DNA of 64,000 nt from Actinomycetota bacterium (GTDB lineage Bacteria; Actinomycetota; Thermoleophilia; Solirubrobacterales; 70-9), in the NCBI GenBank assembly GCA_018268675.1, contig JAFDWB010000093.1, positions 1 to 64,000 of the forward strand, in the 5' to 3' direction. The notes beneath the pieces were generated by a model. That model was not told the DNA's origin and made no database searches. It worked only from the letters and a program-made list of their open reading frames with translations. Within the stretch, counting starts at the first letter, position 1, and the number at the start of each line of letters is the position of its first letter. Positions 1 through 41,886 of the stretch are shown here, piece after piece. The position numbers and the translations under genes were made by a program.

Positions 1-312
1 CTCCTCGACCGCGACCCGCACGCCGTCGGCCATGGTGCCGAGGAAGACGGTCAGCGCGTTGGTCACCGCAGCCATCTGGTAACCCTGCTCGGGCGGCCCG
101 CAGACGGCGACCGCGAAGTCGTAGGAGAGCGCGATGATCGGCGAGAAGGCGCGGTGGAGCAACCCGGTGGCGACGTGCTGGACCGAGTAGCGGAGCCGGT
201 TGGAGAGCACCGTCGCGGTGAAGCGATCGGTGTCGTAGAGGGCTTCGAACTCGGCGTCGCCGAGGTCGCGGAGGAGCGTCTTCGGGGCGCCGATGACGGT
301 GGTCTGCTCCAT
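1..312 (-). CDS. hyuB: Hydantoinase B/oxoprolinase family protein, N-terminal part (cut by window edge)
   Basis: Only the first 104 codons are present; the gene continues beyond the left edge. It starts at the ATG 312-310, behind a purine-rich ribosome site (AGGGGAGAGGGG) and 17 nt after the hyuA stop at 330, so it is the last visible member of the minus-strand run that begins at 7540. Its N-terminus nearly matches the complete HyuB at 2389-4356 (shared YDTDRFTATV and SVQHVATGLLHRAFSP blocks), so it is the second copy of a tandem hyuA-hyuB duplication. HyuB proteins pair with HyuA in ATP-dependent hydantoinases, 5-oxoprolinases or acetone/acetophenone carboxylases. The exact substrate cannot be told from this fragment. 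Confidence 0.88.
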   Translation of the reverse strand, partial: MEQTTVIGAPKTLLRDLGDAEFEALYDTDRFTATVLSNRLRYSVQHVATGLLHRAFSPIIALSYDFAVAVCGPPEQGYQMAAVTNALTVFLGTMADGVRVAVEE

Positions 313-329
313 GATCGTCCCCTCTCCCC

Positions 330-2387
330 TCAGCCTTGCTCGCCCGCGCGAGTGATGACGATCTCGCCGATGCCACCGACCGTCGCCACCTGGCCGATGC
401 CGACGTGGGTGGTCGAGAGCGGCTCGCGGATCACTGCCGGACCGTTGATGACGTCGCCGAGCCGCAGGTCGTCGCGGTCGTATTCGGCCGCCTCGATGTC
501 CTCGTCCTCGAGGTGATGGAGGGTGATGGAGCCGACCGGCTGGAGCGTCTCCCCGGCAGGCCTGCTGCCGGGCGGCGGGTACTCGACTTTCTCGGTCGGC
601 ACCACCGCGGTGAGCCGGAAGGTGACACCCTGCACCGGCATCCCTTCGAAGCGGTTGCCGGAGCGCTGCTCGTAGCCGTCGTGGAAGTTGGCGATCATCT
701 CTTCGACCGCGGCCGGGGTGATCTCGCCGCTCGGCGCTTTGATGAACGGGGTCTCCCAGACCTGGCCGACCAGCTGGCCGTCGAAGCTGCGGACGAATTC
801 GACGTTCTCGGCCTGACTGCCGAGCGCCTCCTTCATCGACTCTTCCATCCCCGCGTAGACGGCGCCGACCTCGTCGGCGGCCTCCGGGGTGAGGATCGTG
901 TAGACGCTGCGACTGTCGGCGTGGACCTGGTCGGCGCTGACCAGGCCGAGCGCCGAGAAGAGCCCGGGGTGCGGCGGCACGATCACGCTCTTCAACTGCA
1001 TCAGCTCGAGCAGCGCCGGCAGCATCATCGGCCCCGCCGCGCCGTAGGCGACCATCGAGTATTCGCGCGGGTCGACGCCATTCTTGACGACCACGTCGAA
1101 GATCCCCTCGGCGACGTTGTTGAGCGCCATTTTGTAGGCGAACCTGACCCGTTCCGAGAGGTCGGCCTGGGTGTCGAGCCCTTCGAAGGCCTGCTTCGAG
1201 AGCTCCGGGTCGAGCCGCGAGCGGCCGGCGGCGAACTTGGAGCCGTCGAGGATGCCGATCAGCAGGAAGGTGTCGGTGGTGGTCGGCGCGGTGCCACCGC
1301 GGCCGTAACAGGCCGGGCCCGGGTCGGCGCCGGCGCTCTCCGGCCCCACCTTGACCTCGCCGGTCGGCGTGATGCTGACGATCGAACCACCCCCTGCGCC
1401 GACGCTGATGATCTCGTTGGAGAGCGTATTGACGACCAGGTCATGCTCGAGCTCGAAGGTGGTGCTGACGTACGGCTCGCCCGCGGTGACGACGCTGATG
1501 TCGCAGGAGGTGCCGCCGACGTCGGCGCAGAGCAGGTTCGGCTGCTCGATCATCCGGCCCAGGTGGGCGCAGGCGACGGTGCCCGCCGCCGGCCCGGAGA
1601 AGACGATCCGCGAGGGCTGCTCCATCGCCACCCGGACCGGCGCCAGCATCGCCGCGCAGTCGGCGAAATTCAGCTCACCGCCGAAACCGAGATCGATGAG
1701 GCCGGCGTGCAGCCGCTCCGAGTAGGGGCCATAGATGATCTTCATCAGCACGTCGATCGTCGTGGTCGAGGCGCGCGAGTACTCGCGGGCAAGCGGCGAG
1801 ACCTCGCTCGAGATCGAGCAGGCGACGTCGCCCAGCTCCTCTCGCACCAGCTCGCGCAGCCGCGCCTCGTTGGAGCCGTCGACGTAGGCGTTGATCAGGC
1901 AGATCGCGACCCCTTCGACGTTGCACCGACCCAGCACCCGCAGCTGCTCGCGGGCCTGCTCCTCGTCGAGTGGGACGACGGTCGAGCCGTCGGCGCCGAG
2001 CCGCTCCTTGATCCCGCGGCGCAGGTAGCGGGGGACGATCGGCGCGGTGACGTCGCCGAACGAGCGCCGCCAGCCCGGATCCGTGTTCGCCTCGGCCGGT
2101 CGCCAGGCGCGCGCCATGTCGAGCACGTCGCGGTGACCGAGCGTGGTCAGGAAGCCGATCTTCGGCAGCCGCCGGGTGATGATCGCGTTGAGCCCGTGGG
2201 TGCTGGCGTGGTTGAAGGCCGAGGCGGCGTCGACGCCGACCTCGGCGGCGCCCTCGAGCACGCCCTTGTGGGTCTCGCTGACGTTGGTCGCCACCTTGAC
2301 CGTCTCGATCGCGCCGTCGCGGATCGCGACGATGTCCGTGAACGTGCCGCCGACGTCGACGCCGATCATGCCTGAGCCCTGAGCCAC
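330..2387 (-). CDS. hyuA: Hydantoinase A/oxoprolinase family protein (copy 1)
   Basis: ATP-binding subunit of a hydantoinase/oxoprolinase/acetone-carboxylase-type enzyme of 685 aa, the usual length for the family. The ASKHA-fold phosphate loops are visible: DVGGTFTD at residues 11-18 and DVGGTSCD near 289-296, then a glycine-rich GAGGGS and SAGADPGPACYGRGG near 351. The start is a GTG one base after the stop of the upstream hyuB; an in-frame ATG at residue 7 is the alternative. It should form a complex with the HyuB protein encoded next to it and phosphorylate or activate an amide, imide or ketone substrate. It is a close paralogue of the HyuA at 4353-6404, and their first 215 bases are almost identical. 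Confidence 0.9.
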   Translation of the reverse strand: MAQGSGMIGVDVGGTFTDIVAIRDGAIETVKVATNVSETHKGVLEGAAEVGVDAASAFNHASTHGLNAIITRRLPKIGFLTTLGHRDVLDMARAWRPAEANTDPGWRRSFGDVTAPIVPRYLRRGIKERLGADGSTVVPLDEEQAREQLRVLGRCNVEGVAICLINAYVDGSNEARLRELVREELGDVACSISSEVSPLAREYSRASTTTIDVLMKIIYGPYSERLHAGLIDLGFGGELNFADCAAMLAPVRVAMEQPSRIVFSGPAAGTVACAHLGRMIEQPNLLCADVGGTSCDISVVTAGEPYVSTTFELEHDLVVNTLSNEIISVGAGGGSIVSITPTGEVKVGPESAGADPGPACYGRGGTAPTTTDTFLLIGILDGSKFAAGRSRLDPELSKQAFEGLDTQADLSERVRFAYKMALNNVAEGIFDVVVKNGVDPREYSMVAYGAAGPMMLPALLELMQLKSVIVPPHPGLFSALGLVSADQVHADSRSVYTILTPEAADEVGAVYAGMEESMKEALGSQAENVEFVRSFDGQLVGQVWETPFIKAPSGEITPAAVEEMIANFHDGYEQRSGNRFEGMPVQGVTFRLTAVVPTEKVEYPPPGSRPAGETLQPVGSITLHHLEDEDIEAAEYDRDDLRLGDVINGPAVIREPLSTTHVGIGQVATVGGIGEIVITRAGEQG

Positions 2388-2388
2388 T

Positions 2389-4356
2389 TCACACCGTCCC
2401 TTTTCGCTGTTGAGTCTTTGCCTGAGCGCGCTCGGCGGCGGTCGCCGCGGCGTCCACCTCGAGCTTCTCGGGAGCCCGATGCGGGTCCCCCACGATCACC
2501 ACGCCGAAATCGCGCCGGGCGCCATCGAGCGTGACGTAGCCGTCGCGGACGTCGAGCTTGACCCGCTCCGGATCGCGCTCGAAGGGGTCGCCCCAGCCGC
2601 CGCCGGCGTTGGTGACATAGCGCCACATCGCCCCGGGCTGGGTCTGCCAGACGGGGCTGCTGCAGAAGTACGCGTACTCGCCCGCGGGATCGGGGACCTG
2701 GGTCGCGGGATCGAGGGTTCCCGCCACGGGCACCGCCTCGGCGTAGACGGCGGGGTCGGTATCGACGAAGATCCCGCGGCCGCCGACCTCGCGCCCGTCG
2801 CGGCCGAAGATCCAGACACCGCCCCCGGCCCCGTCGGCGCCGCCCGCGACGCCCACTCCCGGCCGGTGACGGAACCGGAGTGGCGTCGTCTCGTGCTCGG
2901 CGGGCGCCGTCCACATGATGTCCTTGAGTACACCCGGGCCGCCACGATTGAAGCCGACGCCACCGGTGTCGGGCACGTATTCGCGCCGCAGGATCATCAG
3001 CGGGAAGCCGAGCTCGAGCAGCTCCGAGGGCGGCGCCATGAAGTTGAGCAGGTAGCTGCAAGAGTGACCGTCGGCGTCGCCCGCCTTCGAGGCGCCCCAG
3101 GGGCCGGTCTCGCCTCCGGCAACCGCACTGGCGGCCCAGGGCGTGCCGTCGGGGGTCGTCCCGTAACCGTTGTGGTGGCAGAGCGTCCCGTAATCGCCGC
3201 CGATCGCATCCTCGCCAAGCGCGTTGGCCAGCGCCCGGATCAGCACGGTCATGATCAGGTTGGTGACTTCCATGTAGAAGAAGATCCCGCCTTCGGGTGG
3301 CAGCGCCGTGGTGATCGTCCCGGCGGGCAGCACCAGGTCGAATTCGCGGAAGGTGCCGGAGGTGAAGTCGCTCTCCGGATCGAGCAGGATCTTCAGGCCG
3401 ACGCCGATCGCCGTCTTCGCGTCGAGCGCGCCGCCGTTGATACAGGTCCGCGCCTGGCGCGAGGAGCCGCTGAAGTCGGCCTCGAGGCGCGATCCCCGCT
3501 TGCGCAGGACGATCCTCACCCGATACTCCTCGTCGGCGTCGATCCCGTCGGCGTCGATCGAGTCGACGCCTTCGTAGTCGCCGTCGGGGATCGAGGCGAG
3601 CGCCGTCCGCATCGCCTCCGCCGAACCGTCGCAGAGGTAGCGCAGGGTGCCGAGGAAGGCATCGATCCCGTAGCGGTCGATGCTCTCCTGGATCAACTGC
3701 TCGCCGAGCTCGCAGCAGCCCTGCGTCGTCTTCAGGTCGGGCAGCAACTGCTGGGCGAGGCGGACGTTGTCGAAGATCATGCTGAAGGTCTCGCGCACCG
3801 GCTCGCCGCCGGCGTAGAGGAGGCGGGGACTGATCACCAGCCCGTTCTCGTAGGAGTTCCGCTTGCGCCCCGAGAAGCCACCGGGGGCGATTCCGCCGAC
3901 GTCGGTCTGGTGCGAGCGGATCACCATGAAGCAGGCGGTCCGGCCGTCGCGGAAGACCGGGCGGATGAAGCAAACGTCGTTCGGGTGGTTGCCCATCCGG
4001 CTCGGGTCGTTGCAGATCAGGAGGTCGCCGGGCTTCAGGTTCTCGATCCCGTACTCCTCGACCGCGACCCGCACGCCGTCGGCCATGGTGCCGAGGAAGA
4101 CGGTGAGCCCGTCGGTGACGGCGGCCATCTGGTACCCCTGCTCGGGCGGTCCGCAGATCGCCGCGGCGAAATCGTAGGCGAGCGCGATGATCGGCGAGAA
4201 GGCGCGGTGGAGCAACCCGGTGGCGACGTGCTGGACCGAGTAGCGGAGCCGGTTGGAGAACACCGTCGCGGTGAAGCGATCGGTGTCGTAGAGCGCCCCG
4301 AAGGCGTCCTCGTCGAGGTCGCGCAGCAGAGTGGGTGCGGCGACGGTGGTGGTCAT
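2389..4356 (-). CDS. hyuB: Hydantoinase B/oxoprolinase family protein (complete copy)
   Basis: Second subunit of the hydantoinase/oxoprolinase/carboxylase-type enzyme, 655 aa. The family block HQTDVGGIAPGGFSG lies near residues 148-162, and a glycine-rich C-terminal part (GGAGGGVWIFGRDG-type) is typical. The ATG start overlaps the stop of the upstream hyuA as ATGA (4356-4353), so the subunits are translationally coupled. The stop sits one base before the GTG of the next hyuA. HyuB is normally the catalytic partner that completes ring opening or carboxylation with HyuA. Substrate candidates are hydantoins, lactams, imides or ketones; the neighbouring RutA-like monooxygenase favours an N-heterocycle, which is inference. 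Confidence 0.9.
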   Translation of the reverse strand: MTTTVAAPTLLRDLDEDAFGALYDTDRFTATVFSNRLRYSVQHVATGLLHRAFSPIIALAYDFAAAICGPPEQGYQMAAVTDGLTVFLGTMADGVRVAVEEYGIENLKPGDLLICNDPSRMGNHPNDVCFIRPVFRDGRTACFMVIRSHQTDVGGIAPGGFSGRKRNSYENGLVISPRLLYAGGEPVRETFSMIFDNVRLAQQLLPDLKTTQGCCELGEQLIQESIDRYGIDAFLGTLRYLCDGSAEAMRTALASIPDGDYEGVDSIDADGIDADEEYRVRIVLRKRGSRLEADFSGSSRQARTCINGGALDAKTAIGVGLKILLDPESDFTSGTFREFDLVLPAGTITTALPPEGGIFFYMEVTNLIMTVLIRALANALGEDAIGGDYGTLCHHNGYGTTPDGTPWAASAVAGGETGPWGASKAGDADGHSCSYLLNFMAPPSELLELGFPLMILRREYVPDTGGVGFNRGGPGVLKDIMWTAPAEHETTPLRFRHRPGVGVAGGADGAGGGVWIFGRDGREVGGRGIFVDTDPAVYAEAVPVAGTLDPATQVPDPAGEYAYFCSSPVWQTQPGAMWRYVTNAGGGWGDPFERDPERVKLDVRDGYVTLDGARRDFGVVIVGDPHRAPEKLEVDAAATAAERAQAKTQQRKGTV

Positions 4357-6404
4357 CGGGCCTCCCTGCGGGTGATCACGATCTCGCCGACGCCGCCGAC
4401 CGTCGCCACCTGGCCGACCCCGACGAAGGTGGTCGAGAGTGGCTCGCGGATCACCGCCGGGCCGCTGACGACATCGCCCAGCGCAAGCGCCTCACGCTGG
4501 TACTCCTGCGCCTCGATGTCCTCGTCGTCGAGGTAGCGCAGCGTGATCGTTCCGCTCGGCGACGGTGCGGCGCCGGAGCCGGCCGCCGGAGACGGGTACT
4601 CGACCTTCTCGGTCGGCACCACCGCGGTGAGCCGGAAGGTCACGCCCTGCACGGGCATCCCCTCGAAGCGGTTGCCCGAGCGCTGCTCGTAGCCGTCGTG
4701 GAAGTTGGTGATCATCTCCTCCACCGCCGCCGCGTCGATCGCGCCACCGGGGGCCTTGATGAACGGGGTCTCCCAGACCTGGCCGACCAGCTGGCCGTCG
4801 AAGCTGCGGAGGAATTCGACCTGATCGGCGTCGGCGCCGAGGGTCCGTCGCAGCGAAGCCTCCATCGCGACGTAGACCGCGTCGATCTCCGTGGCCGCCT
4901 CGGGCCCGAGGATCGTGTAGACGCTGCGGCTCTCGGCGTGCGTCTGATCGGCGCTGACGAGGCCGAGCGCCGAGAAGAGACCTGGGTGCGGCGGCACGAT
5001 CACGCTCTTCAGCCGCATGCTGTCGAGCAACGCGGGCAGCATCATCGGCCCGGCGGCGCCGTAGGCGACCATCGAGTACTCGCGCGGGTCGACACCGTTC
5101 TTGACGACCACGTCGAAGATCCCCTCGGCGACGTTGTTGAGCGCCATCTTGTAGGCGTTGCGGACCCGCTCGTCAAAGCCGAACCCCGTCTCCAGCCCTT
5201 CGAAGGCCTGCTTCGAGAGCTCCGGGTCGAGCCGCGAGCGGCCGGCGGCGAACTTGGCGCCGTCGAGGATGCCGATCAGCAGGAAGGTGTCGGTGGTGGT
5301 CGGCGCGGTGCCGCCGCGGCCGTAACAGGCCGGGCCCGGGTCGGCGCCGGCGCTCTGCGGTCCGACCTGCAGCTCACCGGTGTCGGTGATCCAGACGATG
5401 CTGCCCCCGCCCGCGCCGACGCTGGCGATCTCGTTGGAGAGCGTGTTGACGACGAGATCGTGCTCGAGCTCGAAGGTGGTGTTGACGAAAGGCTCGCCAC
5501 CGACCACGACGCTGATGTCGCAGGAGGTGCCGCCGACGTCGGCGCAGAGCAGGTTCGGCTGCTCGATCATCTGGCCCAGGTGGGCGCAGGCGACGGTGCC
5601 CGCCGCCGGCCCGGAGAAGACGATCCGCGAGGGCTGCTCCATCGCCGTCTCGACCGGCGCCAGCATCGCCGCGCAGTCGGCGAAATTCAGCTCGCCCTCG
5701 AAGCCGAGCTCGGTGAGGCCGGCCTGCAGGCGCTCCGAGTAGGGGCCGTAGATGATCTTCATCAGCACGTCGATCGTCGTGGTGGTCGCGCGCGGGTGCT
5801 CGCGGGCGAGCGGCGAGACCTCGCTTGAGAGCGAGCAGGCGACGTCGCCCAGCTCCGCGGCGATCAGCTCGCCGAGCCGGCGCTCGTGGCGGCCGTCGAC
5901 GTAGGCGTTCAGCAGGCAGACGGCGACGCCCTCGACCCCACAGTCGGCCAGGATCCCCAGTTCTTCACGCGCCTGGTCCTCGTCGAGCGGGACCAGCACC
6001 GAGCCGTCGGCGGCGATCCGCTCGACCACCGTGCGGCGCAGGTAGCGCGGCACCAACGCCCGCCCGGAGGCGTCGCCGAAGCTGCGCCGCCAGTGCGGGT
6101 CGGTCTGGCCCGCCCGCGGCCGCCAGGCGTTCGCCATGTCGAGCATGTCCCGATGGCCGAAGCTGGTGACGAAAGCAATCTTCGGCAGCCGCCGGGTGAT
6201 GATCGCGTTGAGCCCGTGGGTGCTGGCGTGGTTGAAGGCCGAGGCGGCGTCGACGCCGACCTCGGCGGCGCCCTCGAGCACCCCCTTGTGGGTCTCGGTG
6301 ACGTTGGTCGCCACCTTCACGGTCTCGATCGCCCCGTCGCGGATCGCGACGATGTCCGTGAACGTGCCGCCGACGTCGACGCCGATCATGCCTGACGGAC
6401 TCAC
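4353..6404 (-). CDS. hyuA: Hydantoinase A/oxoprolinase family protein (copy 2)
   Basis: 683-aa HyuA paralogue of the gene at 330-2387, with the same DVGGTFTD and DVGGTSCD nucleotide-binding loops and SAGADPGPACYGRGG block. The GTG start at 6404 overlaps the TGA of the upstream monooxygenase as GTGA; an internal ATG five codons later (6389) is the alternative. It is encoded directly before the complete hyuB and coupled to it. Divergence from copy 1 is moderate in the middle and very low over the first 215 bases. Two HyuA subunits in one transcript could give isoenzymes with different substrate ranges or simply higher dosage. Confidence 0.9.
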   Translation of the reverse strand: MSPSGMIGVDVGGTFTDIVAIRDGAIETVKVATNVTETHKGVLEGAAEVGVDAASAFNHASTHGLNAIITRRLPKIAFVTSFGHRDMLDMANAWRPRAGQTDPHWRRSFGDASGRALVPRYLRRTVVERIAADGSVLVPLDEDQAREELGILADCGVEGVAVCLLNAYVDGRHERRLGELIAAELGDVACSLSSEVSPLAREHPRATTTTIDVLMKIIYGPYSERLQAGLTELGFEGELNFADCAAMLAPVETAMEQPSRIVFSGPAAGTVACAHLGQMIEQPNLLCADVGGTSCDISVVVGGEPFVNTTFELEHDLVVNTLSNEIASVGAGGGSIVWITDTGELQVGPQSAGADPGPACYGRGGTAPTTTDTFLLIGILDGAKFAAGRSRLDPELSKQAFEGLETGFGFDERVRNAYKMALNNVAEGIFDVVVKNGVDPREYSMVAYGAAGPMMLPALLDSMRLKSVIVPPHPGLFSALGLVSADQTHAESRSVYTILGPEAATEIDAVYVAMEASLRRTLGADADQVEFLRSFDGQLVGQVWETPFIKAPGGAIDAAAVEEMITNFHDGYEQRSGNRFEGMPVQGVTFRLTAVVPTEKVEYPSPAAGSGAAPSPSGTITLRYLDDEDIEAQEYQREALALGDVVSGPAVIREPLSTTFVGVGQVATVGGVGEIVITRREAR

Positions 6405-7540
6405 GCCCGCACCCCGATCGGTAGCCGCAGGCCGCGCTCCTCGAGCCGCGGCAGGACCGTCTCGGCGAAGGCGCCGAGCTCGGCCTCGTAGTCGAGGAAG
6501 GCCAGCATCACCCCGTCGAGCCCGATCTCGCTCAGCTCGGCGAGGCCCTCGGCGACCTGATCGGGCGTGCCGACCAGTTGCCGGGCGCCCATCCCGAGGA
6601 TCGCCTTGTCCTCGGCCTCGCGGATGAAGTCGTCGCTCAGTGACTCGCTGCCGAGGCCGAACTCGGTGAGGTAGCTGCGGGCCGCGGCGCGGTCGCCGCG
6701 GGCGATGATGTCCGTGGCGACCCGGCGGGCCTCGGCCTCGCTCTCGCGGCAGACGACGAAGCCGATCCCCATGAAGCTGAGCTCTCGCTGATATTTGTCG
6801 CGGGCGTGGGCGCGCGCCTTCTCGATATAGGCGCGACCGGTCTCCAAGGACTCGACGTGGACGAAGTTGACGTCGGCGTCGCGGGCGGCGAAATCCATCC
6901 CGGCGGCGGAGTTACCAGCGTTGATCAACATCGGATACTGGTCCTGCCAAGGCTTCGGGTGAGCCTGTACTTCGCTGAGCTGGAAGTACTCGCCGTCGAA
7001 GTCGAAGGGCTCCTCCTCGGTCCAGATCCGCCGCACGATCTCCATCCACTCGGCGCCGTAGCGGTAACGGTCGTCGTGCTCGCGCATCGAGGTGCCGAAC
7101 ATCGTCATGTCCGGCGCGAACCACCCCATCACCGCGTTGAAGGCGTAACGCCCATGGGCGATGTGGTCGATCGTGACGCACTGCTTGGCGGCCGCCACCG
7201 GGTGGGTCAGCGGTAGGTGCAGCGTCGAGACGACGCTGATCCGTTCGGTGCCTGCAGCGATCCCTGCGGCCCAGGTCATTGTCTCGAAGGAGTGGCGGAA
7301 GGGGTCGGTGTCGCCGCCCAGGCCGCGCCAGCGGGCGATCGGGATCAGCAGGTCCATCCCGATCCGGTCGGCCATCCGGGCGATCTCCAGGGTTTCGTCC
7401 CAAGATGCGCTGAAGCCGGTCTCGGCCGTGGTCAGCGAGAGCCCGTTGGTGCAGTTGAAACCGAACAGGCCGAGCTTCAGCCGATGCCCCGCACCGAGCA
7501 TCGCGCGGCCGCCCGGAACCGTTTCCGCAGCTGTCGTCAC
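6401..7540 (-). CDS. RutA/SfnG-like LLM-class flavin-dependent monooxygenase
   Basis: 379-aa luciferase-like monooxygenase of the two-component, reduced-FMN type, resembling pyrimidine monooxygenase RutA and dimethylsulfone monooxygenase SfnG. Diagnostic blocks are KLGLFGFNC near the N-terminus, ETMTWAAGIAA, an AAKQCVTIDHIAHGRYAFN strand, the MGWFAPDM loop and EHDDRYRYGAEWM. The start is a GTG at 7540, because the upstream ATG at 7556 hits a stop after six codons. It is the first gene of the hyuABAB operon, with a GTGA overlap into hyuA. A TAGATT box at 7613-7608 is a possible -10. The enzyme likely adds oxygen to a ring or C-N/C-S bond; a flavin reductase must be supplied from elsewhere. Paralogues lie at 20202 and 36204. 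Confidence 0.88.
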   Translation of the reverse strand: MTTAAETVPGGRAMLGAGHRLKLGLFGFNCTNGLSLTTAETGFSASWDETLEIARMADRIGMDLLIPIARWRGLGGDTDPFRHSFETMTWAAGIAAGTERISVVSTLHLPLTHPVAAAKQCVTIDHIAHGRYAFNAVMGWFAPDMTMFGTSMREHDDRYRYGAEWMEIVRRIWTEEEPFDFDGEYFQLSEVQAHPKPWQDQYPMLINAGNSAAGMDFAARDADVNFVHVESLETGRAYIEKARAHARDKYQRELSFMGIGFVVCRESEAEARRVATDIIARGDRAAARSYLTEFGLGSESLSDDFIREAEDKAILGMGARQLVGTPDQVAEGLAELSEIGLDGVMLAFLDYEAELGAFAETVLPRLEERGLRLPIGVRA

Positions 7541-7668
7541 CTCGGCCTCGTTCCCATCTCTTTTCCTCCGTCAAAGGGCCTCCGGCCTCCCGGGCCGAAG
7601 CCTCATAAATCTAACACAGACCAGAATTATTAGGATACGACCTGGCCAATCACTTTTAGGGAGCAGAA

Positions 7669-8154
7669 ATGAGCCATTCCTCGGATAGAACTTCGAGCAG
7701 AGACCGGGACGAGATCAGCGACCTCCTGATCCATTACGCCTACTGCATCGACACCCGTCAGACCGATCGGCTGGCCGAGGTCTTCGCCGCCGACGTGGTC
7801 ACCAACTACGGCTACGGCGAGGGTGGCGAATGGATTGGCGCCGAGATGCTGATCGCCGGCATCGGCGAGCAGGTCGCGAGCTTCGAGGCGACCGCCCACA
7901 TGATCACCAACATCCGCATCTCCCTCGCCGGCGACACCGCCTCGAGCACCTGTTACGTGACCGGCTGGCACTGGGTGAAGGAGGGCGACACCGACCCCGA
8001 GCGCGGTGCCGACTTCCTCTTCACCGCCGCGTACGTCGACGATCTTCGTCGCGAATCGGCGGGGTGGCGGATCAGCCGCCGCCGGGTGCGCCGTCTCGGC
8101 CCCTCGGCGCTGACGCTCGGCTCGCTCCCGGACTACATGCGCCCCCAGGAATAG
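7669..8154 (+). CDS. SnoaL-like/NTF2-fold protein
   Basis: 161-aa protein of the SnoaL-like (NTF2-fold) group common in aromatic, terpenoid and steroid catabolic clusters. The pattern EISDLLIHYAYCIDTRQTDRL, then a beta-rich core (TAHMITNIRISL, STCYVTGWHW) and a C-terminal GWRISRRRVRR strand, is typical. Family members are lyases, isomerases, dehydratases or non-catalytic subunits, so the reaction is unknown. The ATG is preceded by AGGGAG. The gene is divergent from the hyu operon, and the 128-bp gap carries AT-rich boxes that could serve both directions (TAGATT on minus, TTAGGAT on plus). It converges on the zinc-ribbon gene at 8172. Confidence 0.8.
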   Translation: MSHSSDRTSSRDRDEISDLLIHYAYCIDTRQTDRLAEVFAADVVTNYGYGEGGEWIGAEMLIAGIGEQVASFEATAHMITNIRISLAGDTASSTCYVTGWHWVKEGDTDPERGADFLFTAAYVDDLRRESAGWRISRRRVRRLGPSALTLGSLPDYMRPQE

Positions 8155-8171: not shown

Positions 8172-8396
8172 TCAGACGAGGTCGGAAAGAAGTTCGATCG
8201 GGCCCAGCTTGGGGCCCGGCTCGCGCGAGACGGAGTGGAGGCAGTTCGCGCACTTGACGACGTCGAACCAACCGCCCTCGGAGAGGACGGGGTAGCGCTC
8301 GAGCCGCGCCTCGCCACAGGCTGGGCAACTGCCCTCGACCGGCTCGCGTTCGACCGACAACGTCGGTTCGGTCGGGCGGGCGTGGGGGATGGTCAT
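8172..8396 (-). CDS. Small zinc-ribbon protein
   Basis: 74-aa protein with two CxxC knuckles, CPAC and CANC, about 22 residues apart, which should bind one zinc. Good SD (GAGGAG) 8 nt before the ATG supports a real gene despite its size. I do not recognise a named family with confidence. Small Cys4 proteins occur as third subunits or assembly factors of acetone/acetophenone-carboxylase-type HyuAB enzymes and as regulators, so a link to the nearby hyu genes is possible but unproved. It lies downstream of the ABC binding-protein gene on the same strand, separated from it by a strong GC hairpin at 8433-8456. Confidence 0.7.
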   Translation of the reverse strand: MTIPHARPTEPTLSVEREPVEGSCPACGEARLERYPVLSEGGWFDVVKCANCLHSVSREPGPKLGPIELLSDLV

Positions 8397-8484: not shown

Positions 8485-9699
8485 CTACTTGCCGCTCCAG
8501 AGTTTCTTGAACATCGCTTCGTAGTTGAAAGCGGGCGGTGAGTAGTAGTTCGGCGCCGCTTTCAAGGCCTTTTCGGCACCTTCTTTGCTGTCGATGTAAC
8601 CGACCGGCAGGCCGAACGCTTCCCACGGCTTCAGCCCGGCGGCGACGCGAACAACCTCGTCGACGCCGGCCCAGGCGGCGTAGTTGAACGGGTTCCAGAC
8701 CGTCGCTTTGGCGATTTCCGGACTTTTCAGCATGTCTTCCAAGAAGACCGGCTCGCCGTCGCTGCCGGCGAACTTGACTTCCCGACCCTGCTGTTCGGTG
8801 GTGGTCACCGCCGGGATGTTGTAGGTGTCGGATGCCGCGAACGCCCAACCGAGTTCGCCTTCCGGGTGTGCCGCGAGCGCCGCGGTGAAGTACGGCGGTC
8901 CCGGTTTGGTCAATTCTTCGGTAGCTATCTGTTGTTCTTCATAGACACATTCGGGGCATTTTTCTTCGATCGTTTCCTTCACGGCGTTACCGCGTTCGAT
9001 CATGATGGGGAACGCTTTGTCGCGGAACTGGAGGATCCGTTCCCCCGGTTTGGAGTTGGCGACGACGTAGGTGCCGATGAATTCACCGGTTTCTTTTCCG
9101 TCCGTCGAGGCGAGCGGGACCGGACTGTTCGGTCCGAAACCGGGGTCCGGCGTGCACATGACGCAAGACAGCGGAATGCCGGCCTTGATCGCCGAAGCGA
9201 CCGCGGATTTGACGGAGGCCAGATCGATCGAGTCGATCACGATCCCGTTGTAGCCTTCTTGGACGTACTTTTCGATGATCCCGGCCTGGACCGACGGGGT
9301 GAATTTCCCGTCGCCGATTTCGCTCGGTTCCCAGCCCGCTGCTTCAGCCGCGGCTACCGTCTGCTTGGCCATCCCAAGACAGCCGGTGCCGGCGGTGCTG
9401 CAGGTCACGATGCCGAGTTTCCCTTTCCCTGGGTTATACGGTTCCTGAGGAGGTTCCGGGTATTTCAGCGATTCCAGATTTGAGTGTTCGGAAACGAATT
9501 TCTTCGCTTCTTCGACGCCCGCGGACTTCGAGCCGGCGGCTTCCTTTTCTTCGCCTCCGCCGGCACTTTCCTTAGCTTCGCCGCCGCTCGATTCTTCGGT
9601 GGTCGAACTCGAGGAACTACTTCCGCAACCCGCGGCAACGATTCCAATGACGACAAAAAGAAGCAATGCCGCGAACAACAATCGCGTGGTCTTGGCCAT
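8485..9699 (-). CDS. ABC transporter substrate-binding lipoprotein (orphan)
   Basis: 404-aa periplasmic-binding-protein-like domain 1 (RbsB-type) lipoprotein. The signal peptide has a hydrophobic core and a VAAGC lipobox with C25 as the lipidated cysteine, followed by a Ser/Glu-rich tether. The mature part shows the sugar-binding-type fold (KLGIVTCSTAGTGC, GYNGIVIDSID, FAASDTYNIPAV) and cysteine pairs CVMC and CPEC that could form disulfides. SD GAGAGGAG precedes the ATG. No permease or ATPase is adjacent. The ATPase/permease pair at 33399-36151 has no binding protein of its own and is a candidate partner. Codon use (mostly GAA for Glu) differs from neighbours, suggesting high expression. Confidence 0.88.
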   Translation of the reverse strand: MAKTTRLLFAALLLFVVIGIVAAGCGSSSSSSTTEESSGGEAKESAGGGEEKEAAGSKSAGVEEAKKFVSEHSNLESLKYPEPPQEPYNPGKGKLGIVTCSTAGTGCLGMAKQTVAAAEAAGWEPSEIGDGKFTPSVQAGIIEKYVQEGYNGIVIDSIDLASVKSAVASAIKAGIPLSCVMCTPDPGFGPNSPVPLASTDGKETGEFIGTYVVANSKPGERILQFRDKAFPIMIERGNAVKETIEEKCPECVYEEQQIATEELTKPGPPYFTAALAAHPEGELGWAFAASDTYNIPAVTTTEQQGREVKFAGSDGEPVFLEDMLKSPEIAKATVWNPFNYAAWAGVDEVVRVAAGLKPWEAFGLPVGYIDSKEGAEKALKAAPNYYSPPAFNYEAMFKKLWSGK

Positions 9700-33398: not shown

Positions 33399-34619
33399 CT
33401 ATGTCGTTCGCCGTTTGAACACGCTCGAGAAGGCGACGGCGAGGATCAGGACGAGGCCGTTGACGACTTCGGTCCAGGTGAACGGGACACCGCCGACGAT
33501 CAGCCCCTGGCTGACCCAGACGAGAAAGGTGCCGCCGATCAGGGTTCCCCAGACGTGGAATCGGCCGGTCGAGAGGATCACGGTCGAGAGGAAGGCGGCG
33601 GCGAAGGCGGGCAGCAGGAACGAGGTCGCGGCGCCGGGCGAGGCGGTCCCCTGGTTGGCGCCGAGAAGGATCCCGGCGAGCGCCGCGAGGACGCCCCCGA
33701 GGACGAACGCCTTGAAGGTCTCCTTGCCCGGATTGACACCGGCCAGGGTGGCGGCCTCGGCGTTGCTGCCGGTCGCCCGCAGGTAGCGACCATAGGTCGT
33801 GTAGTCGAGCAGCAGCCAGACCACCAAGGCGACGATCAGGAGCACGCCCATCGTCCACGAGATCGCGTTGACCCAGTTCGAAAGCCCGAGTGCGAAGAGA
33901 ATCGCCGCGATCACCACGACGACGGCGCCGCTGATGATGTCCCAGCGCCGCTCCTCGGTCCGCGCCGGTCGCATCCGGCGGAAGGCGAGGAAGACCATAA
34001 CGGCGGCGGCCCCGAGGCCGACCCAGACCAGCACCGCGGGGAACTTCTCGCCCAGCGAGCCGAGCGAGTTGGCGCCGGAGAACCAGCTGGGGAGTTCGGC
34101 CTGTCCCGCCCCGGCGACGATCTGGGTTCCCTTCGAGTAGACCGCCGAAAGGCCGAGGAAGACACCGCCGGTGCCAAGCGTCGCGATGAACGTGTTGACC
34201 CGCAACTTGACCACCAGGAAGCCGTTGACGGCGCCGCCGACGACACCGACCAGCAGGCAGACGGCCAAGACCAGGGCGAAGGGCCAGTCTTGGTTCAGCT
34301 TCAGCCCGATCACGAGGAAGGCCGAGAGCGTCGCCATCGAGGCAACAGAAAGGTCGAACTGACCCGCTATCAGGGTCACCAGAACGGCCAGACCGAGCAG
34401 CAGGACCGGGGTGTTCTGGTGGATGTCGAGGGCACGCGCGTCGGTGCTCGCGAACTTGCCGCCCAGCCAGATCGTGTAGATCAGGAAGACGACCAGGAAG
34501 GCGATGAAGGTGATCGACGCGCCCAGGAGCTTGGTCAGGTCGAACTGCCGCTGGGCCGAACTGCCCCGTTTCGAATCAGGGTTGACGGGGGTGGCCGGGA
34601 CGGCCTCGGTCGCGCTCAT
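33399..34619 (-). CDS. ABC transporter permease, RbsC-type (importer 1)
   Basis: 406-aa integral membrane protein with about 10 hydrophobic segments and the RbsC-family stretches VLVTLIAGQFDLSVASMATL, RVNTFIATLGTGGVFLGLSA, YGRYLRATGSNAEAATLAGV and WGTLIGGTFLVWVSQGL. Starts by ATGA overlap with the ATPase stop. Forms the channel of a carbohydrate-type (CUT2) importer. There is no binding-protein gene in this half of the operon. Confidence 0.9.
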   Translation of the reverse strand: MSATEAVPATPVNPDSKRGSSAQRQFDLTKLLGASITFIAFLVVFLIYTIWLGGKFASTDARALDIHQNTPVLLLGLAVLVTLIAGQFDLSVASMATLSAFLVIGLKLNQDWPFALVLAVCLLVGVVGGAVNGFLVVKLRVNTFIATLGTGGVFLGLSAVYSKGTQIVAGAGQAELPSWFSGANSLGSLGEKFPAVLVWVGLGAAAVMVFLAFRRMRPARTEERRWDIISGAVVVVIAAILFALGLSNWVNAISWTMGVLLIVALVVWLLLDYTTYGRYLRATGSNAEAATLAGVNPGKETFKAFVLGGVLAALAGILLGANQGTASPGAATSFLLPAFAAAFLSTVILSTGRFHVWGTLIGGTFLVWVSQGLIVGGVPFTWTEVVNGLVLILAVAFSSVFKRRTT

Positions 34620-36151
34620 CAGATGAAGGCCTCCAGTTGTTGCGGGTTCGTCTCCTCGGCTTCGATGAAGGCGCCGAGCCGGCCGTCGACGACGACGGCG
34701 ATGCGGTTGCAGATTGCGAACAGGTCCTCCGAATCAGAGGTGACGACGAGGACCCCGGCGCCACCGGAGGCCAGGTCCTCGATCAGCTTGTAGATCTCCA
34801 TCCGGGTGCCGACGTCGACGCCGCGGGTTGGCTCGCAGAGCACGTAGACGGACGGCCCGCTGAGCAGAGCTCGCCCGAAGACGACCTTCTGCTTGTTGCC
34901 ACCGGAGAGCGTGCCGAAGACCGCGCCGGGATCGGCTGGTCTGACGCTGAGGCGATCCATCACCTCACCCGCGTCACGGCGCTCGCTTCCCCCGCGCAAG
35001 AGCCGCACCGGCGAGCGCCAGCGGGACAGCGAGGAGATCGTCAGATTCTCGAGGGTGCTCTGCTCGAGGAAGCCGCCTTGCGTCTCACGGTGCGGCGGCA
35101 CCAGCGCGGAGGTGCAGCCGGCGGCCCGTACGACCTTGCCGCCGCGCGGCTTCATCGTCCCGTGGGCGAGGTGGGCGACATCGTGAAGTCCCGAGCCGGG
35201 GAGGCCGGTGAGCCCGACGATTTCGCCGCTCTTGAGGATCAGGTCGACGCCGTCGATCAGCCCGCCCTTGACGTCCTCCAGGCGGAGCAACTCCTTGCCG
35301 CCGCCCGCCGGACGCGGCTTTGCCGTCGCCTCCTGGGCGACATCTTCTTTCTCCCGCGTGACCAGCATCTCGACCAGCGCCGAGCGGTCGAGCGAGGCGG
35401 CCGGAGAATCGGCGACGATCTTGCCGTCGAGCAGGAGGACGACGCGGTTGGTGGCGTCGAGGATCTCCGAGAGCTTGTGACTGACCATGATCACGGTCGC
35501 CCCGCGGGCGGCGGTCTGCTTCAGCGCTTCGATCAGTCGATGCGAGTCGTGGGGAGGCAGGGTCGAGGTCGCCTCATCGACGAAGATGACTCGCGCGCCG
35601 CGCTCCAGGACCCGCGTGATCGCGACCAACGTCTTCTCCCCCGGAGACAATTGGCCAATCAGAGTTTCTACTGGCAATTCGAGACCGACATTAGCCAGCG
35701 CACGGACCGCCGCCTCCCGCTCGCGGCCACGGTCCACGAACGGGCCGATGCGCCGCATCGGTTGCTCGCCGAGCCTCAGGTTGTCGGAGATCGAGAGCTC
35801 GTCGACCAGCCCGAGATCCTGGTGGATAAACCCCACCTCGGGCCGTTCACCGAGCTTCGAGACGGCTTCGCCGCCGTACTGGATCTGGCCTGAACTGCGG
35901 TCGTAGACGCCGTCAAGGATCTTGATCAGGGTCGACTTGCCCGCCCCGTTGGGGCCCATCAGGCCGACGAAGTCACCGCCCCTGATAGTCAGGTCGATGC
36001 CGCCCAGGACCTCGGTCGAGCCGAACGACTTGCGCAGTCCAGAGATCACGATGTCCTTGGCCGGCTCGATTTGCCCAAACCCGTCGCGGTCGCCTTCGGG
36101 GCTCGCTGCGGATCCGGTCGCAACTGTGGTCGCGTCCAATTTTCTCTCCAC
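34619..36151 (-). CDS. ABC transporter ATP-binding protein, RbsA-type tandem NBD (importer 1)
   Basis: 510-aa protein with two nucleotide-binding domains. NBD1 has Walker A GPNGAGKST (about 71-79), signature LSPGE and Walker B VIFVDEAT. NBD2 has a degenerate Walker A (GLPGSGLHD), signature LSGGNKQK and a Walker B reading VYVLCEPTRG, in which the Asp before Glu is Cys. The degenerate second site is usual in this family; the Cys is less so. GTG start at 36151, 52 nt after the LLM stop, in a gap with a TTGACA and a palindrome. Overlaps the permease gene. Confidence 0.9.
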   Translation of the reverse strand: MERKLDATTVATGSAASPEGDRDGFGQIEPAKDIVISGLRKSFGSTEVLGGIDLTIRGGDFVGLMGPNGAGKSTLIKILDGVYDRSSGQIQYGGEAVSKLGERPEVGFIHQDLGLVDELSISDNLRLGEQPMRRIGPFVDRGREREAAVRALANVGLELPVETLIGQLSPGEKTLVAITRVLERGARVIFVDEATSTLPPHDSHRLIEALKQTAARGATVIMVSHKLSEILDATNRVVLLLDGKIVADSPAASLDRSALVEMLVTREKEDVAQEATAKPRPAGGGKELLRLEDVKGGLIDGVDLILKSGEIVGLTGLPGSGLHDVAHLAHGTMKPRGGKVVRAAGCTSALVPPHRETQGGFLEQSTLENLTISSLSRWRSPVRLLRGGSERRDAGEVMDRLSVRPADPGAVFGTLSGGNKQKVVFGRALLSGPSVYVLCEPTRGVDVGTRMEIYKLIEDLASGGAGVLVVTSDSEDLFAICNRIAVVVDGRLGAFIEAEETNPQQLEAFI

Positions 36152-36179
36152 GGTTAGAAAAACCCGGACCCATGGAAAC

Positions 36180-36200
36180 CGATCCCGGGATCGTTGTCAA
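36180..36200 (-). promoter_or_regulatory. Internal promoter with CGATCCCGGGATCG palindrome
   Basis: On the minus strand TTGACA (36200-36195) is followed at once by the perfect 14-bp palindrome CGATCCCGGGATCG (36193-36180); the -10 region (TTCCAT) is weak. The gap lies just upstream of importer 1. A palindrome in the spacer is where a LacI-type repressor would act, and such a regulator is encoded three genes downstream. Confidence 0.5.
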
Positions 36201-36203
36201 GGG

Positions 36204-37253
36204 CTAAATGCGCAGATCCATTTCACGCAACAGCGGCAGCACCTTTTCTCCCAGTGGGCGCAGTTCGGAGGCGTAGTCGGGCAGGCCGAAGAAAACGCCG
36301 TCGATTCCCGCGTCGGAGAGCGCCCGCAGGCCCTCGGCGACCTGTTCGGGGGTGCCACGAATGGCGTGGGCGCCAAACCCGACGACGAATTTGGCCTCGA
36401 AATCGGCGATCTGCTCGCCGAAGCTTTCGCTCTCGATACCGAGCACTCGCATCACGTTGCGAGCTCCCTCCCAGTCGCCGTCGTCGAGGATCGCGCGGTA
36501 GGCGCGCTCCGCCTCGCGCTCGCTGTCGCGGCAGATGATCACCGCGTTGGTGAGGACCCCGGCCTGGCGTTCGTAGCGCTCTGCCGCCAGGGCTCGGAAC
36601 CGGGCGCCGAACTCGCGGGCCGAGTCGATCGAGGTGACGCTGGCAAAGTTGAAATCGACCTCGCGAGCGGCGAAGTCGAGGCCGGCCGGCGAGCTGCCGG
36701 CGTTGATCAGGATCGGTCGGGACTGCGGCTTCGGCAGGCTCTGCACCTCCCGCAGTTGGAAGAACTCGCCATCGAAGTCGAAGGGCTCGGACTCCGACCA
36801 GAGCCGGTTGACGATCGCGAGCCACTCGGTGCCGAATCGGTAGCGGGAGTCGTGCTCGCGCTGGGTGGCGCCGAACATCGCCATCTCTTCGGTGAACCAG
36901 CCCATCACCAGGTTGAGGCCGAGGCGGCCGCCGGAGATGTGGTCGACGGTCGCCGCCATCTTCGCCGCGGCGACAGGGTGGATCAGCGGCACGTGGAGGG
37001 TGGCGAAGACCCGCGTCCGCTCGGTCGCCTCAGCGAGTCCGGCGGCCCAGGTGAACGACTCGAAGGATTCGCCGTTGAAGTTACCGCTGCCACCGAATCC
37101 GCGCCAGCGGGCGACCGGCACCACCGCGTCGAGTCCGAGCTCGTCGGCCTCGATCGCGATCTTCTGCATCGTCGCCCAGTCGACCCGATGCGGGGAGTCG
37201 GCGACCATCGTCATGCCTCCGCTGCAGTTGAAGTTGAAGACGCCGAGCTTCAT
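36204..37253 (-). CDS. RutA/SfnG-like LLM-class flavin-dependent monooxygenase
   Basis: 349-aa LLM, third RutA/SfnG-like paralogue: MKLGVFNFNCSGGMTM, VARWRGFGGSGNFNGESFES, TVDHISGGRLGLNLVMGWF, REHDSRYRFGTEWL, INAGSSPAGLDFAAREVDFN. Start taken at the ATG 37253; a TTG at 37289, overlapping the stop of the upstream dehydrogenase, would add 12 residues. Embedded between the tartrate-dehydrogenase-like gene and importer 1, so its substrate may be the imported compound. Needs reduced FMN. Confidence 0.86.
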   Translation of the reverse strand: MKLGVFNFNCSGGMTMVADSPHRVDWATMQKIAIEADELGLDAVVPVARWRGFGGSGNFNGESFESFTWAAGLAEATERTRVFATLHVPLIHPVAAAKMAATVDHISGGRLGLNLVMGWFTEEMAMFGATQREHDSRYRFGTEWLAIVNRLWSESEPFDFDGEFFQLREVQSLPKPQSRPILINAGSSPAGLDFAAREVDFNFASVTSIDSAREFGARFRALAAERYERQAGVLTNAVIICRDSEREAERAYRAILDDGDWEGARNVMRVLGIESESFGEQIADFEAKFVVGFGAHAIRGTPEQVAEGLRALSDAGIDGVFFGLPDYASELRPLGEKVLPLLREMDLRI

Positions 37254-37285
37254 CCTGTGCTCGCCCAGGGATGTCGCCCCCGCGT

Positions 37286-38419
37286 TCAACCCCTGCCTCC
37301 GGCGGCGACCATCTCCACCGGCGCGGCGGCGGCGCCTTTCAGAGCCAGCCGCTCGACCACCGCCGCGGTCACCTCGGCGGTCCGCGCACTGCCGCCGAGG
37401 TCCGGCGTCAGCGCCTCCCCGCTTCGCAACACCGCCTCGACCGAGGCCATGACCGCGTCCGCCGCGTCCACCTCACCGAGGTGCCGGAGCATCATCGCCA
37501 CCGACCAGATCTGGCCGATCGGGTTGGCGACACCGCGGCCCGCGATGTCGGGGGCGGAGCCGTGTATCGGCTCGAACATCGATGGGTGGCGGCCGGTGGG
37601 GTCGAGGTTGGCGGACGAGCCGAGCCCGATTCCGCCGACCACCGCGGCGCCGATCTCGCTGAGGATGTCGCCGAAGAGGTTGGAAGCGACGACGACGTCG
37701 AACTCGGCTGGTTCGAGGACGAAGGCGGCGGCCAGTGCGTCGACGTGGACGCTGCGCAGCTCGACCGCCGGGAACTCTGCCGCCACCGCCCTGACCGCGG
37801 CGTCCCAGAAGGGCATGCTGTGGGGGAGCCCGTTGGACTTGGTCGCCGAGACCACCCGGCCACGACGTTCGGTGGCCAGCCGAAAGGCATAACGGGCGAC
37901 GCGTTCGCAGCCGGTGCGGCTGAACCCGGCCACCTGCAGACAGACCTCGTCGTCCGACGGCTGGCGGAGGACGCCGCCGATATCCGAGTACTCGCCCTCG
38001 GTGTTCTCCCTCACGACCACCAAGTCGACCGCGGCCGCCAACCGGTCGGCGAGCGGTGAGCGGACGCCGCCGATGCGGCGGATCGGACGCACGTTCACGA
38101 ACTGATCGAAACGGCGCCGGATGGGCATTATCAGCTCCCAGATCGAGACCGCGTCGGGGACGTCGGAGCGACCGATCGCGCCGAGCATGATCGCCTCGAA
38201 ACGGTCGAGGCGATCGAGCGCGTCGGCCGGCATCATCCGCCCCTTGGCGACGTAGTGGTCGCATCCCCAGGGGAACCGCTCGAGCTCGAGCTCGAAACCC
38301 CAGCGCCCGGTGGCGGCGGTCAGCACCGCGAGCGCCGCCTCGGTCGTTTCGACGCCGATCCCGTCGCCGGGGATCACGGCGACGCGATGGAGCCTGCGGG
38401 CGCTCCGCTCGTCGGTCAA
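37286..38419 (-). CDS. Tartrate/D-malate dehydrogenase-like (isocitrate/isopropylmalate dehydrogenase family)
   Basis: 377-aa NAD-dependent beta-decarboxylating dehydrogenase. Signatures: VAVIPGDGIGVETTEAAL, WGCDHYVAKGRMMPADALD, PIRRRFDQFVNVRPIR, VVRENTEGEYSDIGG, SATKSNG and NLFGDILSEIGAAVVG followed by ANLDPTGRHPSMFEPIHGSA. The WGCDHY and PIRRRFDQFVNVRP forms point to tartrate dehydrogenase/D-malate dehydrogenase rather than LeuB. Expected to oxidise and decarboxylate a 2-hydroxy acid. TTG start 10 nt after the SDR stop, with a weak SD. Follows the SDR of importer 2 and precedes the LLM. Confidence 0.86.
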   Translation of the reverse strand: MTDERSARRLHRVAVIPGDGIGVETTEAALAVLTAATGRWGFELELERFPWGCDHYVAKGRMMPADALDRLDRFEAIMLGAIGRSDVPDAVSIWELIMPIRRRFDQFVNVRPIRRIGGVRSPLADRLAAAVDLVVVRENTEGEYSDIGGVLRQPSDDEVCLQVAGFSRTGCERVARYAFRLATERRGRVVSATKSNGLPHSMPFWDAAVRAVAAEFPAVELRSVHVDALAAAFVLEPAEFDVVVASNLFGDILSEIGAAVVGGIGLGSSANLDPTGRHPSMFEPIHGSAPDIAGRGVANPIGQIWSVAMMLRHLGEVDAADAVMASVEAVLRSGEALTPDLGGSARTAEVTAAVVERLALKGAAAAPVEMVAAGGRG

Positions 38420-38429
38420 CGCCGCGGGC

Positions 38430-39248: not shown

Positions 39249-39260
39249 ATTGCCATCTCC

Positions 39261-41851: not shown

Positions 41852-41886
41852 GGCGATCAGGCGGTCGCTCTACTCTGGGGCGACGT

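What the first reader, a model, noticed from the sequence alone, without database searches (positions are those of the whole stretch)
1..7540. RutA/SfnG-like monooxygenase translationally coupled to a hydantoinase operon
RutA opens the uracil ring by oxygenation, and HyuAB-type enzymes open cyclic imides or lactams with ATP. A RutA-like LLM overlapping hyuA by GTGA, with a doubled hyuAB set, suggests an oxygenase-plus-ATP-hydrolase route for an N-heterocycle that is neither the Rut nor the classic hydantoin pathway.
Basis: inference. Interest (0 to 1): 0.6.

Follow-up and report, generated by a model that had tools for sequence, protein, structure and literature searches.

The report
Oxygenase beside three-part hydantoinase-like enzyme
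The gene pair is real, but a comparison of genomes shows that the constant partner of this ATP-using enzyme is an overlooked small zinc-ribbon protein and not the oxygenase, so it looks more like an unassayed relative of the ketone carboxylases than a clear-cut enzyme for nitrogen rings.

Summary
A luciferase-like monooxygenase (LLM, 6401-7540, minus strand) overlaps hyuA by GTGA, and hyuAB is tandemly duplicated (82-85% aa). The second hyuB is cut by the contig end. In 17 of 17 other hyuAB loci of this subtype, ZnR adjoins hyuA or hyuB, and in one it is fused to HyuB. In a 232-genome sample of the order, hyuA of this subtype and strong ZnR matches occur in exactly the same 11 genomes. The LLM family shares only this genome with them, and only 1 of 17 sister hyuAB loci has an LLM within 10 kb. 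In the window the LLM sits between ZnR and hyuA, where relatives have ZnR itself. A published survey says hydantoinases lack a gamma subunit and ketone carboxylases have one. Frequent neighbours (SDR 15/17, acyl-CoA ligase 11/17, FAD monooxygenase 8/17) suit ketone metabolism, but HyuAB sequence and fold lie nearer the hydrolases. The LLM has RutA's dioxygen motif, which SfnG lacks, but belongs to neither family. Best reading: a three-subunit ATP-dependent carbonyl-activating enzyme, slightly more likely a carboxylase than an amidohydrolase, paired here with an FMNH2 oxygenase. The N-heterocycle route is possible but unproven.

The parts
6401..7540 (-). LLM: FMNH2-dependent luciferase-like monooxygenase, 379 aa, RutA-type dioxygen motif (T106, N135, V137)
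   Evidence: PF00296; motif in 45/45 family members
6401..6404 (-). GTGA overlap: stop of the LLM and start of hyuA1
   Evidence: sequence
4353..6404 (-). hyuA1: alpha subunit, ASKHA-type ATP site (DVGGTFTD, DVGGT, GADPGP), 683 aa
   Evidence: PF01968/PF05378/PF19278; motifs
2389..4356 (-). hyuB1: beta subunit, metal tetrad D62/H124/D127/H149, 655 aa
   Evidence: PF02538 E=4.1e-116; alignment to CapB and carboxylases; the four residues are invariant in the 15-row alignment of relatives
330..2387 (-). hyuA2: second alpha subunit, 82% identical to hyuA1
1..312 (-). hyuB2: N-terminal 104 aa of the second beta subunit, cut by the contig end
8172..8396 (-).
   Evidence: next to hyuA or hyuB in 17/17 relatives, fused to HyuB in one; co-occurrence
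7541..7668 (.). intergenic region between the divergent LLM operon and the SnoaL-like gene, likely to hold the promoters
   Evidence: gene layout; inference
7669..8154 (+). SnoaL-like protein (PF13577), divergent, between ZnR and the LLM; role unknown
8485..9699 (-). Peripla_BP_4 (RbsB-type) substrate-binding lipoprotein upstream of ZnR on the same strand; possible uptake component
   Evidence: PF13407; RbsABC-type genes also lie near LLM homologues and near one sister hyuAB

Best explanation
The core is a three-subunit ATP-dependent carbonyl-activating enzyme, HyuA + HyuB + ZnR. HyuA (ASKHA kinase fold) phosphorylates the substrate's carbonyl as its enol or imidate, and/or bicarbonate. The activated intermediate moves to the metal centre of HyuB (D62/H124/D127/H149), where the bond is made (carboxylation) or broken (ring opening). 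ZnR docks on HyuB as a structural or allosteric gamma-like subunit. I think carboxylation of a ketone-type substrate is somewhat more likely (about 0.5) than hydrolysis of a cyclic amide (about 0.35). In this genome an FMNH2-dependent RutA-like monooxygenase has come to lie between znR and hyuA and is coupled to hyuA, so that oxygenase and ATP enzyme are made together. In 8 of 17 sister loci an FAD FMO/BVMO-type monooxygenase lies within 10 kb, and the LLM may fill the same place. Shown: gene content, overlap, duplication, conserved ATP, metal and dioxygen motifs, ZnR linkage and co-occurrence, and one HyuB-ZnR fusion. Inferred: ZnR docking, substrate class, reaction type, shared pathway with the LLM.
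For: ZnR adjoins hyuAB in 17/17 sister loci: upstream of hyuA with gaps of -4 to +98 nt in 15, after hyuB in one, fused to HyuB's C-terminus in Pseudonocardia oceani. ZnR (E<=1e-30) and hyuA1-type (E<=1e-170) occur in the same 11 of 232 order genomes and ZnR and hyuB1-type in the same 3 of 396 phylum genomes. The weaker ZnR hits of the order lie at or beside other HyuAB pairs. Three other HyuB genes of this genome carry Acetone_carb_G (PF08882) at or near the C-terminus. The literature restricts gamma to ketone carboxylases (PMC5214803). A zinc-ribbon subunit, VdcD, activates a decarboxylase (PMC8379154); 6/18 ZnR members match the VdcD model weakly, best E 0.005. Neighbours within 10 kb: SDR 15/17, CoA ligase 11/17, FAD monooxygenase 8/17. 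ATP and metal motifs intact.
Against: HyuA groups on the hydantoinase side of the tree, apart from ApcC and AcxA, though on long branches. HyuA and HyuB score best against N-methylhydantoinase and caprolactamase, and the HyuB1 model is nearest caprolactamase (Z 36.3, against 28.7 for Apc and 22.6 for Acx; mean pLDDT 69). ZnR has no sequence hit to Apc or Acx gamma or to PF08882, and three members have lost the Cys residues. In this genome CoA ligases are not enriched near HyuB genes (3/28 within 12 kb). LLM plus hyuAB of this subtype is seen in only two genomes, and in the second they are several kb apart.
Confidence: 0.5

Rival explanations
1. One reading: the LLM oxygenates an N-heterocycle as RutA does, and HyuAB hydrolyses the resulting cyclic imide or lactam with ATP.
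For: RutA-type dioxygen motif in the LLM family; HyuAB nearest N-methylhydantoinase and caprolactamase. A distant LLM homologue in Variovorax sp. RA8 is followed by an SDR, an isochorismatase-family hydrolase, leuCD-like genes and a flavin reductase, reminiscent of rutA/rutB/rutF.
Against: No amidase, carbamoylase or obvious nitrogen-metabolism genes among the annotated genes beside the operon. Sister hyuAB loci sit with SDR, CoA ligase and FAD monooxygenase genes. The third subunit is not described for hydantoinases.
Confidence: 0.33
2. Chance neighbourhood: the LLM and hyuAB serve different substrates and share a promoter because this genome holds dense islands of catabolic genes.
For: The genome has 45 PF00296 matches and 22 HyuB matches at about ten places. 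The pairing is not conserved. 4-nt overlaps are common.
Against: Translational coupling in one operon. Four of six LLM1-family genes lie within 12 kb of a HyuB, against 7 of 39 other LLMs, with 6% of the genome that close (post hoc, small numbers). In Nocardioides immobilis an LLM homologue lies 5.6 kb from hyuB of this subtype.
Confidence: 0.3
3. The LLM is a sulfone/sulfonate oxygenase of the SfnG type.
For: Best NCBIfam hit is SfnG, 211.6 bits; best solved structure is SfnG.
Against: Below the SfnG cut-off of 383. SfnG and the alkanesulfonate enzyme have Ala where the whole family has Thr (RutA T105), and they fall outside the family in the tree.
Confidence: 0.07

Closest known systems
Acetophenone carboxylase ApcABCDE (PDB 5L9W)
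   Same: alpha and beta subunits, ATP motifs, metal tetrad; small Cys4 zinc subunit; gene order gamma-alpha-beta (apcB-C-D) as in the sister loci
   Different: No alpha' (hyuA2 is a near copy, 82% identical, not a 30% paralogue), no epsilon found; HyuA does not group with ApcC; ZnR not alignable to Apc gamma here
Acetone carboxylase AcxABC (PDB 5M45, 5SVB)
   Same: alpha-beta-gamma composition; some weaker-ZnR relatives have the order alpha-beta-gamma
   Different: ZnR does not match PF08882; beta subunit much shorter (655 against 776 aa); metal ligand Asp62 where Acx has Glu89
Caprolactamase CapAB (PDB 6YRA) and N-methylhydantoinase (PDB 7HK5)
   Same: closest HyuA/HyuB by sequence score and by fold; same metal tetrad
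   Different: two subunits only; below the NCBIfam CapA and CapB cut-offs; HyuB1 has about 21 extra N-terminal residues before the part that aligns to CapB
RutA pyrimidine monooxygenase
   Same: Thr105, Asn134, Val136, Trp139 of RutA conserved; RG-x-GG loop
   Different: 164 bits against a cut-off of 498; Lys69 replaced by Arg in 45/45; no rut gene set
VdcD, zinc-ribbon activator subunit of vanillate decarboxylase
   Same: under 10 kDa, Cys4 TFIIS-like ribbon; marginal profile similarity
   Different: partner enzyme is UbiD-like, not HyuAB; similarity below threshold

Membership tests
Hydantoinase/oxoprolinase branch (Hyd, alpha-beta) | HyuA and HyuB domains with ATP motifs and metal tetrad | tested here: met
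   Pfam, motifs, tetrad
Hydantoinase/oxoprolinase branch (Hyd, alpha-beta) | Two subunits only, no gamma (PMC5214803) | tested here: not met
   A ZnR gene adjoins hyuAB in 17/17 relatives, is fused in one, and co-occurs in 11/11 and 3/3 genomes; physical complex not tested
Hydantoinase/oxoprolinase branch (Hyd, alpha-beta) | HyuA clusters with Hyd and apart from Apc/Acx | tested here: met
   Starred branches separate it from ApcC/AcxA, but long branches and few references
Acetophenone carboxylase (Apc) | NCBIfam equivalog cut-offs for the subunits | tested here: not met
   ApcC 205 of 1500, ApcA 132 of 1250, ApcD 85 of 1500 bits
Acetophenone carboxylase (Apc) | Second, divergent alpha' subunit | tested here: not met
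   hyuA2 is an 82% duplicate; sister loci have a single hyuA of this type
Acetophenone carboxylase (Apc) | Small Cys4 zinc gamma subunit next to alpha-beta | tested here: inconclusive
   Present as ZnR in position and Cys pattern, but no homology to Apc gamma shown
Acetone carboxylase (Acx) | gamma subunit of PF08882 | tested here: not met
   No PF08882 hit for ZnR at E<=5; PF08882 is found fused to other HyuB proteins of this genome
ATP-dependent ketone carboxylase (activity) | Bicarbonate- and ATP-dependent carboxylation of a ketone | not testable with these tools
   needs enzyme assay
Caprolactamase CapAB | NCBIfam equivalog cut-off (1000 bits) | tested here: not met
   CapA 334, CapB 188
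RutA | NCBIfam TIGR03612 cut-off 498.3 | tested here: not met
   164.1 bits
RutA | Dioxygen motif Thr105, Asn134-x-Val136 | tested here: met
   T, N, V in 45/45 family members
RutA | Lys69 of the substrate-side loop (role recalled from memory) | tested here: not met
   Arg in 45/45
SfnG | NCBIfam TIGR04021 cut-off 383 | tested here: not met
   211.6 bits; Thr instead of Ala at RutA position 105
VdcD | NCBIfam NF041205 cut-off 30 bits | tested here: not met
   6/18 members match weakly, best E 0.005; the scores shown are 14.0-14.6 bits

The most novel reading that the evidence does not exclude
Probability: 0.3. Interest if true: 0.7.

Novelty: new variant of a known kind. Interest (0 to 1): 0.48.

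Why it matters
Here is a clade whose alpha and beta look hydantoinase-like yet travel with a dedicated zinc-ribbon protein. It is a direct test of what the small subunit does and whether the rule predicts chemistry. HyuAB genes are widely annotated as 'hydantoinase' by default, so the answer would change many annotations. The LLM pairing itself matters less, as it is not conserved.

Tried and rejected
ZnR as a homologue of Apc/Acx gamma: no hit in PDB sequences, Pfam or Foldseek/VIA on a pLDDT 87 model, which only shows generic TFIIS/Rpb9-like ribbons; inconclusive, not disproved. C8 contig end as the missing rest of hyuB2: thought unlikely, because dS is 0.68 against 0.26-0.31 for the duplicates and no k-mers of 19 or more are shared with the window; it is probably a third copy. 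LLM + HyuAB as a conserved pair: rejected. RutA or SfnG membership: rejected by cut-offs. Metal tetrad or ATP motifs as discriminators of hydrolase and carboxylase: useless, shared by both. A literature search for hydantoinase with luciferase-like monooxygenase and operon, and one for hydantoinase with zinc ribbon, found nothing. CoA-ligase proximity as support within this genome: not enriched.
Full report
WHAT IS THERE. On the minus strand lie an LLM (6401-7540), hyuA1 (4353-6404), hyuB1 (2389-4356), hyuA2 (330-2387) and the first 104 codons of hyuB2 (1-312). The LLM and hyuA1 share GTGA and hyuA1 and hyuB1 share ATGA. Pfam confirms Bac_luciferase, Hydant_A_N/Hydantoinase_A/Hydant_A_C and Hydantoinase_B. 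The two hyuAB copies are a tandem duplication (HyuA 82% aa; 84% nt) with dS about 0.3, dN/dS 0.3-0.4 and both HyuA ATP sites intact.

A MISSED GENE. Upstream, at 8172-8396(-), lies a 74-aa ORF, ZnR, with CPAC...CANC and a YPVLSEGGW segment. I found 17 other loci with hyuA of the same subtype (52-64% aa; other HyuA of this genome are 32-36% in the pairs compared) in Actinomycetota (including Pseudonocardia dioxanivorans CB1190, P. oceani, Nocardioides immobilis and Rhodococcus plasmids) and on a Burkholderia arboris plasmid. All 17 have ZnR at the operon: directly upstream of hyuA in 15 (gaps -4 to +98 nt), just after hyuB in L158, and as an in-frame C-terminal extension of HyuB in P. oceani L133. 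In the 232-genome order sample, hyuA of this subtype (E<=1e-170) and strong ZnR matches (E<=1e-30) fall in exactly the same 11 genomes. In the 396-genome phylum sample, hyuB of this subtype and ZnR fall in the same 3. Five weaker ZnR matches in the order sample lie at or beside other HyuAB pairs, three of them clearly in the order alpha-beta-ZnR. The genomes are related, so these counts are not independent events, but the linkage is unusually tight. ZnR is therefore the constant partner of this enzyme, and the LLM is not.

THE LLM. Only 1 of the 17 loci has an LLM homologue within 10 kb (N. immobilis, 5.6 kb from hyuB). Of 84 LLM-homologue loci outside this genome, from Actinomycetota, Pseudomonadota, Bacillota and others, only that one has hyuAB of this subtype nearby; one more has a distant HyuB. 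In the order, the LLM family (E<=1e-85) occurs in 6 genomes and shares only this one with the hyuA subtype. In the window, the LLM and a divergent SnoaL-like gene lie between znR and hyuA1, 1767 nt apart, where relatives have the two genes side by side. I read this as a derived arrangement. Within this genome 4 of 6 LLM1-family genes lie within 12 kb of a HyuB, against 7 of 39 other LLMs: suggestive, post hoc and based on small numbers. The protein belongs to neither RutA nor SfnG by curated cut-offs. All 45 family members examined carry Thr, Asn and Val at RutA 105, 134 and 136, the dioxygen motif linked to N5-(hydro)peroxyflavin chemistry (PMC10005588, PMC8234197). SfnG and an alkanesulfonate monooxygenase have Ala at 105 and fall outside the family. 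RutA itself sits on a branch too long to place. A distinct FMNH2 oxygenase family with RutA-like oxygen chemistry is the best-supported description. Its common neighbours elsewhere are SDRs, carboxymuconolactone decarboxylase-like proteins, aldehyde dehydrogenases, RbsABC-type transporters, flavin reductases, leuC/D-like and riboflavin genes.

HYDROLASE OR CARBOXYLASE. Weidenweber et al. 2017 (PMC5214803) define the family's branches: hydantoinases with alpha and beta only, acetone carboxylases with alpha, beta and gamma, and acetophenone carboxylase with alpha', gamma, alpha, beta (and epsilon). By composition and, in the sister loci, by gene order (gamma-alpha-beta as in apcB-C-D) this enzyme resembles the carboxylases. 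Three other HyuB genes of this genome carry the acetone carboxylase gamma domain PF08882 at or near the C-terminus, the same place where P. oceani carries ZnR. Neighbours within 10 kb of the 17 loci are SDR in 15, acyl-CoA ligase in 11 and FMO/BVMO-like FAD monooxygenase in 8 (Pfam checks), which fit alcohol-to-ketone-to-acyl-CoA logic. Such genes are common in these genomes, and in this genome CoA ligases are not enriched near HyuB, so this is supporting evidence only. On the other side, HyuA scores best against N-methylhydantoinase and HyuB against caprolactamase, the HyuA tree puts the clade on the hydantoinase side (long branches), and the HyuB1 model (mean pLDDT 69) is closest to CapB (Z 36.3), then N-methylhydantoinase (29.4), Apc (28.7) and Acx (22.6). 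The metal tetrad (D62, H124, D127, H149) and ATP motifs are common to all branches. I put carboxylation at about 0.5 and amide hydrolysis at about 0.35.

ZnR MECHANISM. The predicted fold is a generic zinc ribbon (TFIIS/Rpb9-like, best Z 4.2). No relation to Apc or Acx gamma could be shown or excluded. A useful parallel is VdcD, a zinc-ribbon subunit under 10 kDa that activates vanillate decarboxylase allosterically and also resembles TFIIS (PMC8379154); 6 of 18 ZnR members match its profile weakly (best E 0.005). Two Rhodococcus members and one Pseudonocardia member have lost the cysteines but keep YPVLSEGGW, so that segment, not the metal, may carry the interaction. Docking on HyuB is inferred from the fusion.

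VERDICT. The inferred N-heterocycle pathway is possible but not favoured, and the premise of a conserved oxygenase-HyuAB unit is not met. The more durable finding is a hydantoinase-like alpha-beta pair with a dedicated zinc-ribbon third protein, which I found no description of in the papers searched (open-access library only).

Noticed in passing
window 8172-8396(-): Zinc-ribbon ORF with no family model above cut-off in Pfam or NCBIfam; constant neighbour of this hyuAB subtype.
   Followed up: yes
L032:3297-5465(-), L029:1409-3583(-), and contig C87 near 212 kb of the own genome: HyuB proteins with a C-terminal acetone carboxylase gamma domain (PF08882); Pfam-confirmed on the protein for the first two, by six-frame match for the third.
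   Followed up: partly
L133:8913-11057(-) (Pseudonocardia oceani KRD185): Natural HyuB-ZnR fusion.
   Followed up: yes
L150:9947-17971(+) (Variovorax sp. RA8 plasmid 2): LLM-SDR-isochorismatase-ICL/PEP mutase-leuC-leuD-RibBA-flavin reductase cluster: RutA/RutB/RutF-like logic joined to leuCD and lyase genes, possibly a catabolic route for an alkyl-substituted N-heterocycle.
   Followed up: no
L151:6048-16703 (Rhizobium tropici CIAT 899 pRtrCIAT899a): LLM homologue with flavin reductase, carboxymuconolactone decarboxylase-like protein and RbsABC-type transporter; related LLM genes recur on many Rhizobium plasmids (57 of 71 plasmid records).
   Followed up: no
own genome: Large catabolic expansion: 45 PF00296 matches, 28 AMP-ligase matches and 22 HyuB matches in 4.2 Mb, reminiscent of the enzyme-family expansions reported for SAR202.
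   Followed up: partly
L030:1-1002(+) (contig C8): C-terminal part of another hyuB of the subtype (63% to hyuB1) at a contig end, followed by a Zn-dependent alcohol dehydrogenase and three SDRs; probably a third copy.
   Followed up: partly
window 36204-37253(-) and flanks 33399-43080: LLM paralogue between two ribose-type ABC transporter sets and an isopropylmalate-dehydrogenase-like gene; syntenic in G008 (L119, 80-97% aa).
   Followed up: no
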